Positions 50,500 through 53,214 of a stretch of 64,000 nt of DNA are shown piece after piece. The stretch comes from an uncultured Dehalococcoidia bacterium (lineage in GTDB: Bacteria > Chloroflexota > Dehalococcoidia > Lucifugimonadales > UBA3495), in assembly GCA_951813535.1 (NCBI GenBank), contig OX638345.1:3774608-3838607 (forward strand), in the 5' to 3' direction. The notes beneath the pieces were generated by a model. That model was not told where the DNA came from. It searched no databases and worked only from the letters and a program-made list of their open reading frames with translations. The position numbers were made by a program, and so were the translations under genes. The stretch's first letter is position 1. The number at the start of each line of letters is the position of its first letter.

Positions 50500-53214
50500 T
50501 CATCTTTGAGGCATGATCCTTTCATACCGTTTTCGGAACGCTTCACTGCCGCCCTCCATTACTGTGCAAATTTCCCCTCTGACTCGCATTTCCTGAAGTC
50601 CACCTTCGCAAGAAACGACCGTTCGCCCATTCGTTGCGGCCAGCGAGAGCACGAGCTCCGCATCCCCATGCACCACGATATTGGGGTTGTGCGTGACCAC
50701 GATGACTTGGCGTTTCTGCTTGATCTCGCGCAATCGATTCACCAACAGGTCGTAGATAAGAGTGTTGTCAAGATCGTCCTCGGGTTGATCCAAAATAATT
50801 GGCTCCGACCCGTATCCCAGGACAAACGCTAGCAACGCGGCAGTCTGCTGTCCGGGCGAGCCCTGCGCGAGAGGTCTCCAACCGCCTCCACGTGCATCTT
50901 GAAACTCTACACTCACCGTGTCTTCAGGCACGTACAAGGCGAGGCGGTCAATCCGTTCAGGAGGGACTCCCTTCAAGGCTGCCGCGAAGCGCCGGTCGCG
51001 GACGTCCCAAATTTCATCGTCTCCGTTGATATAACCACGTATTTGAGCTACTACCTCGTCTAACGCTTCCCAACTCCACGGTTCGTTTGGCTTAGGTCGG
51101 ATTCGTTGCGCGAGTGCTTGGCGGTCATCCTCGAAACGTTCAATTCCGAGAATCGAGCTCAACGCACCTGATAGGTTGGCCCAATTGGCGTTAGGGGTTA
51201 CCTGCACGCGAATGAGATCGCTCGACGTGGATTCAACAAAACTCTCCCGTCTTTCGGTCAATTCATGATGCTTGGCCCGGTATTCGTCGAGAGTACCAAT
51301 TGCATCTTGTTCGAGCGCGCGTGCCCGGTCTGATTGTCCAATCAACCCTTCGATTTCCAGGTTGAGTTGGCCTGCTTGATCCAGTAAACCGTCATATTCG
51401 CTTGGATCGAGTATGCCTTGTACTGCAAGCTGGTTGGCGACTTCTCTGTAGTGGATCTCGGCTGACTGTACAGATTCGTTCCATGTCAAAACTTGCACAC
51501 TGGATTGAATGTTGAGTACGTCTCGCTGTGCTTTCGCTACGGCTTCCTGGACTGTTTGCTGCAAGTCCAAAACAGTCTGCTTTAATGATCGGTGCGCTTG
51601 CTCTAAGGCCGTAAGTGATTGGTCAGTATCAGTATCCATCAGGAAATCGAGATCGTCGACCGAAAGATCCGTGGCGGCGCCCGCTAAGACTTGGACGGAC
51701 TCAGATACGCGACCGACCGTCGTCTTCCAGGCGTCATCCTGTTGACGCCGTAGGCGGTAATTATTCAAAACTTCCGTATGTCCACTCTCCTGAAGTACAT
51801 TCAACTTCCGTTGCACGTCTTCCAAGGCCGCCCGTCGAGATGGCAAGTCTTTAGCTTGATTTGCGGCGGCCCGAGCCTCGGCGCGTAGAGCCAAGTAACT
51901 GGATTGCAGCTGTTCGGCAGAGCGATCGATTTCAGACCGTCGCACTGTTCTGCTGTCGTCAATTACTGTGAGGAGTGCATCTGCATCTTGAGCGAGCGCG
52001 AAAAGTTGCTTTTGACTGTAAATGCGCACCGGAAAACGCTCTCTGACATCACCATGTTGTACAACCGGTTCGGCGCCGTCCAAGAGCGCGATTGACGAAT
52101 CTGGGTCCTGGGTGCTCCAAGATATTGCGAAGCGGTCTCCGTCCTTTCGGTAAACGACTTCCAGTGTCGTGTCGTTCGTGAGCAGGCTGTCAGCTTGCCG
52201 CGATGTTTGGGCGCTCATGCGTCGATCAAACAATTGGCGCAGGGGGCCGTCTTCCGCGCCATCCCCGCCGTCAAGTTCCGAATCCCGACACAGTGTCTTA
52301 CGGACAAAATCAACCAATGACGATTTACCGGTTCCGCGCGCTCCTATGATTGCATTAAGCCACGGGTTAAATTTGACGATGACAGGGGATTGCCGGCCGA
52401 AATATTTGGCTTGTTTGACTGTGATACTCTCGACTGCCAGATCAGCGTAGCTGTTCGGGTCTTCTTGTTCGGCTGGCGTTGATGGGATGAGAGATTCCTG
52501 ACCATCCAGGAAGGCTAAGCGTAAACCCTCCAAGTTCGGGATGGTCATCTTCATCCAAGTGAAACGTTGGCCGATCTGGCTGAGGTTATGCCCGTCAGAA
52601 GACCATATTCTGGGCAGTTGCCTTCCTATTTCCGGAAGCGACCCATCAATCCACTTGGTTTCAAGATGTCTCGCCGGATCGATCTCAACGGCCGCGAGGG
52701 TAGGATCGCGTAATTCCTCGATGCGTTGTAAGCCATCTTGGCTTAGGAGACCATCAGGCCCGTTGATGTGCGCGCCCACTACAAGCACGTCGCTTTCACA
52801 CTGGTCTAATATTTGCTCGACGCTGAGAGTAGAGCGCCCGGTTTGTTTCCCGCGCTGGTCGACAGGCACCTTCATAGTAGAAAGCAAAGCCTCAATGTGT
52901 TGTTGTGACTTGTCAGGGTCCATGACAAGGATCAAGTGCGTGCCGTCGCTCGCGGTCAGTTCCACTCCTGGGTACAGGAACAGCGAGATACCATCGCCGT
53001 CGATGGTGTTCTGCAGCGCCGCGATTGCGTCTGCCGTGTTGTGATCGGTGACCGCAACAGCATGGATCCCGGCGTTGCTGAGTGCTTTCAGCCAACCACC
53101 CCAATCTTTGTCGACCTCGCCCGATTGAAGCTTGTAGTCGTACGATATTGGGGAATGAGCGTGTAAATCCACGCGCCACCACCGAGATCCAGGCCAACGC
53201 CACTCTGTGCTCAT
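50500..53214 (-). CDS. PHP-phosphoesterase / SMC-like AAA ATPase (TrlF-like), putative defence protein
   Basis: 904 residues, intact. The N-terminal PHP hydrolase has all metal-binding motifs: VDLHAHSP near 15, VTDHNT near 55, PGVELTA near 82, GAHINGPDG near 145 and WSSDGHN near 205. An SMC/RecF-type ATPase follows, with Walker [12 protein letters not shown] near 290, a ~350-residue coiled-coil centre, signature [10 protein letters not shown] near 790, Walker [13 protein letters not shown] near 815 and VTHNPN near 845. The layout matches what is annotated in databases as TrlF-family ATPases. ATP-gated PHP nucleases are often found in anti-phage islands, and here it sits beside restriction and OLD genes. 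The start is ATG 53214 with GGAG about 10 bases upstream. Confidence 0.8.

What the first reader, a model, noticed from the sequence alone, without database searches (positions are those of the whole stretch)
50500..53214. PHP nuclease fused to an SMC-like ATPase inside a defence island
All PHP metal motifs and all ABC-ATPase motifs are intact in one 904-residue protein with a long coiled coil. Such ATP-gated PHP enzymes are little characterised. The neighbours (restriction, OLD, Fic, YhaNO) support an anti-phage or DNA-damage role.
Basis: partly seen in the sequence, partly recalled or inferred. Interest (0 to 1): 0.6.

Follow-up and report, generated by a model that had tools for sequence, protein, structure and literature searches.

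The report
PHP–SMC nuclease missing its partner
A known type of bacterial anti-virus DNA-cutting enzyme, controlled by ATP, sits in a defence hotspot of this genome, but it has lost the RNA-cutting partner gene that usually follows it.

Summary
The ORF is real and exact: 50500-53214 (-), 904 aa. It has an N-terminal PHP domain with its metal ligands kept and a Rad50/SMC-type ATPase head split by a coiled coil. It is not a new kind of protein. It passes NCBI's TrlF family cut-off and lies next to the anti-phage exonuclease Ppl, whose mechanism (NTP-inhibited ssDNA 3'-5' exonuclease) is already reviewed. The head is therefore more likely an ATP sensor than a motor. New here: 55 of 78 testable TrlF loci carry, directly downstream, a Schlafen-like protein (TrlG) that keeps the SLFN13 RNase triad. 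TrlF and TrlG are co-inherited across phyla. The gene is foreign (54% G+C against 62.5%), patchy, and lies in a variable spot after yhaNO; the adjacent type I RM system is broken. Best reading: a horizontally acquired, partnerless TrlF that works like Ppl. The gene itself is ordinary; the TrlF-TrlG pairing is the interesting part.

The parts
50500..53214 (-). trlF-family gene, 904 aa PHP-SMC-like ATPase
   Evidence: ORF; NCBIfam NF045780 532 bits, cut-off 350
52462..53187 (-). PHP nuclease domain, residues about 10-251
   Evidence: VIA-align 5zb8 (EndoQ) Z 20.7 over model residues 11-251; invariant ligands
51940..52443 (-). ATPase head, N-terminal half with Walker A (residues 258-425)
   Evidence: GARGTGKS at 291-298, invariant G291, R293, G294, K297, S298
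51226..51939 (-). antiparallel coiled-coil region, residues 426-663; only 4 Cys in the protein (139, 309, 869, 883), so no CxxC zinc hook
   Evidence: secondary structure; Cys positions
50515..51225 (-). ATPase head, C-terminal half: signature SPGQ 786-789, Walker B with Gln810, H-loop H842
50408..50503 (-). place where trlG starts in relatives: an ATGA overlap is kept but the 31-codon frame after it is not TrlG (possible vestige, weak)
   Evidence: translation; TrlG HMM finds nothing downstream
49693..50431 (+). hsdM remnant (C-terminal part, frameshifted near 50.15 kb), convergent to trlF; not part of trlF but marks the right edge of the insert
   Evidence: N6_Mtase 88 bits to residues 20-134; sequence
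53320..56466 (-). yhaN-like SMC ATPase gene upstream, left edge of the variable spot
   Evidence: AAA_27 86 bits; genus comparison
56466..57731 (-). yhaO/sbcD-like metallophosphatase gene
   Evidence: Metallophos 49.9 bits, SbcD TIGR00619 62.1 bits, below its cut-off 77.65
39143..41977 (+). hsdR-like type I restriction subunit, open frame 944 aa (context)
   Evidence: EcoEI_R_C and ResIII
42620..44683 (+). OLD-like ATPase-TOPRIM gene (context)
   Evidence: PADLOC Old
42180..42659 (+). Fic/Doc gene (context)
   Evidence: Fic 55.9 bits

Best explanation
It is a horizontally acquired TrlF/Ppl-type defence nuclease. Two heads pair around ATP in the Rad50/SMC manner and hold the PHP nuclease off. 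Because the catalytic Walker B glutamate is glutamine, ATP is bound and hardly turned over, so the head reads the nucleotide level instead of working as a motor. When phage replication drains nucleotides and exposes DNA ends, the clamp relaxes and the PHP site degrades DNA, stopping the phage and perhaps the cell. Its lineage normally pairs it with TrlG, a Schlafen-like RNase; this copy lost trlG and now acts alone, as Ppl does, or is decaying. Shown: domains, ligands, Q810, family, absence of trlG, foreign composition and patchiness. Taken from the Ppl review: exonuclease, NTP inhibition, DNA-end trigger. Inferred: that these hold for this protein, that Q810 slows hydrolysis, that the heads dimerise, and that the trlG loss is derived.
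For: NF045780 532 bits, cut-off 350; Ppl model 478.7 bits over residues 9-900; PADLOC Ppl 391.6 bits. Model pLDDT 87.2; PHP nearest EndoQ, a DNA endonuclease, and the head nearest SMC/Rad50. PHP ligands invariant. Q810 in 91 of 91 (13 rows including the window and Ppl were not fetched with a pattern containing it). Ppl mechanism (section read). No full-length homologue in 13 other genus genomes; 1133 of 72,556 plasmids, 835 conjugative; 7 phage-collection records with partial matches. trlF 54.0% G+C against 62.5% for the window. TrlG full in 55 of 78 loci, none at the window; no SLFN_AlbA_2 in the own genome, with 5 of 14 control genomes ringing. Different cargo at the same spot in genus mates.
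Against: No biochemistry. It misses the Ppl model's cut-off (478.7 against 1000). Ppl and TrlF are only about 28% identical, so substrate and polarity could differ. E812 or another acid could serve as the base, so Q810 need not abolish hydrolysis. Loss of the usual partner and a broken neighbourhood could mean the gene is no longer useful. About half of the full-flank TrlF loci (16 of 31) show no methyltransferase motif nearby.
Confidence: 0.6

Rival explanations
1. TrlF is mainly the sensor or regulator of TrlG, the Schlafen-like RNase effector; without trlG the window gene is a decaying leftover.
For: TrlG follows TrlF in 55 of 78 loci and the two are co-inherited (Mantel r 0.78, 52 loci, 0 of 2000 permutations as high). 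TrlG keeps the acidic triad E15, E20, D60, matching SLFN13 E205, E210, D248. In Photorhabdus the growth-restricting mutations hit TrlG and never TrlF (PMC7554251, passages). Two relatives, L052 and L053, show trlG remnants, so loss recurs.
Against: The PHP ligands of TrlF are conserved across the family, so TrlF is probably catalytic itself. Whole TrlG-less clades persist, including a 10-row clade with the plasmid TrlF L029, and Ppl works as a single gene. The window ORF is intact.
Confidence: 0.25
2. A restriction-linked second-tier guard in the manner of PrrC, tied to the type I system beside it.
For: hsdM remnant about 69 bp away. E. coli plasmid L030 has hsdR-like, N6 methylase and trlF in a row, and L029 has a C5 methylase and type II enzyme beside trlF. 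A methyltransferase motif lies within 6.5 kb in 15 of 31 loci against 1 of 20 control stretches (p 0.0009). TrlF sits between HmaB and HmaC in L034, L041, L042, L049, L051 and L061.
Against: The partner systems differ from locus to locus, and the seed-family test alone was not significant (6 of 31 against 1 of 20, p 0.15). 0 of 30 HmaC loci in the phylum have TrlF or TrlG within about 1.5 kb. In the window hsdM is broken, so no guarded system is left.
Confidence: 0.1
3. A DNA-repair or housekeeping nuclease (SbcCD- or EndoQ-like) working with YhaNO.
For: Co-directional with yhaN 105 bp upstream; PHP fold nearest EndoQ.
Against: Absent as a full-length gene from all 13 other genomes of the genus, although 4 of those 13 have a yhaN match. 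Other cargo sits behind yhaN in two genus mates, and neither cargo nor hsdM tail was seen in a third. Common on plasmids.
Confidence: 0.05

Closest known systems
TrlF family AAA-like ATPase (NCBIfam NF045780; Photorhabdus trlRFG temperature-restriction locus, PMC7554251)
   Same: Full-length match above the curated cut-off; same PHP + split ATPase head + coiled coil order; the Photorhabdus gene lies in an operon with trlG, as do most relatives of the window gene.
   Different: The window copy has no trlG; it belongs to a separate, well-supported clade of 22 rows (100 SH-aLRT) whose members are 45-58% identical to it.
Ppl, E. coli anti-phage protein (NF042955, PADLOC PDLC02208)
   Same: Same domain order, all PHP ligands, same SPGQ and LDQPEDDLD motifs, single-gene arrangement.
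   Different: About 28% identity; the window protein scores 478.7 against a cut-off of 1000; Ppl's activity has been tested by others, this protein's has not.
Spaf_1101 family AAA-like ATPase (NF045781)
   Same: Related PHP-ATPase family model; the distant TrlF-like rows aligned all have the same Walker B Gln.
   Different: 236.8 bits against a cut-off of 475.
Endonuclease Q (PDB 5zb8, 7k30)
   Same: PHP fold, Z 20.7 over 221 residues.
   Different: EndoQ is a separate lesion-specific enzyme without an SMC-like head (recalled); 15% identity.
Rad50 / SMC / Wadjet JetC heads
   Same: Head fold split by a coiled coil, Z about 18 for SMC and Rad50 heads.
   Different: Short coil, no zinc hook, Walker B Gln, fused nuclease instead of an Mre11/SbcD or JetD partner.

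Membership tests
TrlF family (NF045780) | Whole-protein score above 350 bits | tested here: met
   532 bits, residues 9-900
TrlF family (NF045780) | trlG directly downstream (usual, not stated as required) | tested here: not met
   No TrlG downstream; no SLFN_AlbA_2 in the own genome; 55 of 78 loci have it
TrlF family (NF045780) | trlR regulator upstream as in Photorhabdus | not tested
   No trlR sequence was searched; yhaN lies upstream
Ppl (NF042955) | Score above 1000 bits | tested here: not met
   478.7 bits
Ppl (NF042955) | NTP-inhibited ssDNA 3'-5' exonuclease activated by 3'-OH ends | not testable with these tools
   Described for E. coli Ppl in PMC12904381
PHP superfamily | Metal-ligand set and PHP fold | tested here: met
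   Ligands invariant in 41; EndoQ Z 20.7; but Pfam PF02811 14.9 bits, below its 26.4 cut-off
SMC/Rad50-type ABC ATPase | Walker A, signature, Walker B, H-loop in a head split by a coiled coil | tested here: met
SMC/Rad50-type ABC ATPase | Catalytic glutamate after Walker B Asp | tested here: not met
   Gln810 in the window and 91 of 91 rows
Hma system | HmaA, HmaB, HmaC in one operon with the gene | tested here: not met
   Neighbours of the window gene are yhaN and an hsdM remnant; a HmaC match lies elsewhere in the genome

The most novel reading that the evidence does not exclude
TrlF-TrlG is a two-nuclease defence unit: an ATP-sensing, hydrolysis-poor (natural Glu-to-Gln) SMC-like head that, when nucleotides run out, releases both a PHP DNase and a Schlafen-type RNase. 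It travels across phyla on its own, on plasmids, or inside methyltransferase operons such as Hma. The window copy is a natural experiment in which the DNase half has been left without the RNase half.
Probability: 0.35. Interest if true: 0.65.

Novelty: new member of a known kind. Interest (0 to 1): 0.38.

Why it matters
The gene itself adds one divergent, partnerless member to a family whose sister, Ppl, is already explained. What could matter is the wider pattern. A bacterial Schlafen-like RNase is tied to a PHP-ATPase in most relatives and co-inherited with it, and the ATPase carries the change that experimenters make to trap SMC heads with ATP bound (recalled). That gives a simple, testable idea of how these systems sense nucleotide loss, and it links an animal antiviral RNase family to a bacterial defence operon.

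Tried and rejected
Housekeeping role: rejected on patchiness and variable context. TrlF as a standard part of Hma: rejected, 0 of 30 HmaC loci (the 30 loci handed out of the 96 genomes with matches) had TrlF or TrlG in about 1.5 kb of flank. trlG hidden elsewhere in the genome: none by protein search or by PF04326. A weak tblastn hit of 'TrlG' inside window trlF (50666-50803) is an artefact: that query's open 5' extension overlaps TrlF in another frame. The first gene caller and the codon-usage caller both missed real trlG genes in some loci (for example L034, L062); the counts used come from six-frame HMM search. A promoter/terminator scan gave nothing above shuffles.

Literature: searches. 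No paper on a TrlF-TrlG defence system or on the Walker B Gln of Ppl/TrlF appeared in these listings. The primary Ppl paper is not in the held library as far as these searches show, so the mechanism is taken from a review passage.

Limits: the TrlF locus scan used peptide patterns that include LDQPEDD, so Q810 invariance in those 78 rows is partly built in. The tree is a quick one; L050 and L101 were dropped. Some of its 'noTrlG' labels are wrong (L034, L062; the missed genes show). Methyltransferase context used a motif test on 31 of 80 loci with full flanks, with 20 control stretches from eight genomes of the window's phylum only; an earlier looser run over all loci flagged 33 of 80. Pfam neighbour tallies used 57 of 96 and 77 of 93 picked neighbours. 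The Mantel test used 52 loci whose TrlG piece was over 300 aa and 200 bits.

Full report
What was claimed. A 904-residue PHP nuclease fused to an SMC-like ATPase at 50500-53214, in a defence island.

What is there. The ORF is exact and intact. The predicted model (pLDDT 87.2, pTM 0.72, 41-row alignment) has an N-terminal PHP domain. In the second-look structural alignment its best match is Endonuclease Q (Z 20.7 over 221 residues); residues 258 to about 890 match SMC and Rad50 heads (Z about 18). The PHP ligand residues are invariant or nearly so. No relative of the whole protein was found among solved structures, by sequence or by fold; the matches were separate PHP and SMC/Rad50 proteins. 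One motif is not standard. Where Rad50 has Asp-Glu in Walker B, this protein has Asp-Gln (alignment). The Gln is present in 91 of 91 aligned rows, including Ppl. 78 of those rows came from a scan whose pattern contained that motif, so the fair statement is 13 of 13 outside that scan.

What family. NCBIfam calls it TrlF (532 bits, cut-off 350). The Ppl model gives 478.7 bits, far below its cut-off of 1000. PADLOC's Ppl model also matches. Ppl is a known single-gene defence protein. A 2026 review describes it as a ssDNA 3'-5' exonuclease that is kept off by bound NTPs and switched on by nucleotide depletion and 3' ends (PMC12904381, section read). TrlF is named after a Photorhabdus temperature-restriction locus, trlRFG (PMC7554251; passages and one section read). 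There, mutations that relieve growth arrest fall in trlG and none in trlF.

The missing partner. In relatives, the gene directly after trlF encodes a protein with SLFN_AlbA_2 and a C-terminal HATPase_c_4 domain (6 of 6 tested), which I call TrlG. A profile search of the 1.6 kb after trlF finds a full TrlG in 55 of 78 loci with enough sequence, counting the window among the 78, partial in 2, none in 21 (3 of 81 loci had too little sequence). In the window's own clade (23 loci including it) it is 17 full, 2 partial, 4 none. TrlG keeps two glutamates five residues apart and an aspartate 40 residues on (E15, E20, D60). SLFN13's catalytic residues are E205, E210, D248 (PMC5862951, passages). Its model matches a bacterial protein of unknown role (3lmm) and then SLFN11, 13 and 14. 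TrlF and TrlG distances correlate (r 0.78 over 52 loci; 0.88 over 14 in the window clade; no permutation of 2000 as high), so they travel together. The window has none of this. After the trlF stop come an ATGA overlap like that of relatives and then unrelated sequence, then the hsdM remnant. The complete genome has no SLFN_AlbA_2 match and no match to L022's TrlG. The closest row, L033 (58% identity, joined to the window with 94% SH-aLRT), does have trlG, so loss is the simplest reading.

Where it sits. Its G+C is 54.0% against 62.5% for the window and 66% for its two neighbours. Of 13 other genomes of the genus none has a full-length homologue. yhaN is found in 5 of 14, the window's genome included. 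Behind yhaN, one mate (L118) has a NERD-UvrD helicase gene with a 190-bp piece of the same hsdM tail, another (L120) a broken, more distant PHP-ATPase, and a third (L119) metabolic genes. This is a variable spot. Nearby hsdR is open, but hsdM is truncated and frameshifted, and IS genes fill 45-49 kb.

Wider context. 1133 of 72,556 plasmid records match, 835 of them predicted conjugative. Seven phage-collection records match in part. In a P2-like Yersinia phage the gene is cargo between the replication and portal genes. In a Vibrio element, neighbouring genes are annotated as polymerase-III-like (PHP?) and ATPase. DNA methyltransferase motifs occur within 6.5 kb in 15 of 31 TrlF loci against 1 of 20 control stretches (p 0.0009); the seed-family version of the test was not significant (6 of 31 against 1 of 20, p 0.15). 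In six loci TrlF lies between HmaB and HmaC, but 0 of 30 HmaC loci in the phylum have TrlF or TrlG close by, so this is an occasional arrangement.

Mechanism. Most likely an ATP-sensing clamp that restrains a PHP DNase, as in Ppl. The step from Ppl to this protein is inference, since the two are only about 28% identical. That Q810 makes the head a sensor is also inference, from the behaviour of Glu-to-Gln SMC mutants (recalled). Whether the gene still works without trlG cannot be told from sequence.

Verdict. A real, correctly read, but known kind of defence nuclease. The new elements are the widespread Schlafen-like partner, its absence here, and the family-wide Walker B glutamine.

Noticed in passing
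window 44737-49401: IS21 pair (45449-47808) and pieces of an IS1380-type transposase (48685-49401) and other transposase fragments separate OLD from the hsdM remnant.
   Followed up: partly
L118 5017-7218 and 7241-7430: In a genus mate the same spot after yhaN holds a NERD-UvrD helicase gene (PADLOC C3a187) and a 190-bp copy of the hsdM tail at 93% identity: a cargo-swapping spot.
   Followed up: partly
L120 2924-5439: Another genus mate has a different PHP-ATPase beside yhaN, split into two overlapping frames (598 and 254 aa), apparently broken.
   Followed up: partly
L034, L041, L042, L049, L051, L061: TrlF, mostly with TrlG, is embedded between HmaB and HmaC of Hma systems in several phyla; the system with these two extra genes may be a distinct variant.
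   Followed up: partly
L173 1343-3959 (Vibrio element PE001): Adjacent genes annotated as DNA-polymerase-III-alpha-like (possibly PHP) and ATPase: possibly the two halves of TrlF as separate genes.
   Followed up: no
L172 2871-5489 (Yersinia phage vB_YenM_42.18): The 872-aa protein annotated 'chromosome partition protein' matches the TrlF C-terminal head; possible phage-borne relative.
   Followed up: no
G000:C1:954851-957229: The window's own genome has a HmaC-like gene far from the window (675 bits, 1460-aa open frame).
   Followed up: no
L091 1474-2706: A second TrlG-like gene on the minus strand about 5 kb from the TrlF-TrlG pair; whether it has a TrlF of its own was not looked at.
   Followed up: no
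window 1331-1969: Four tRNA genes (Thr, Tyr, Thr, Gly) clustered at the window start.
   Followed up: no
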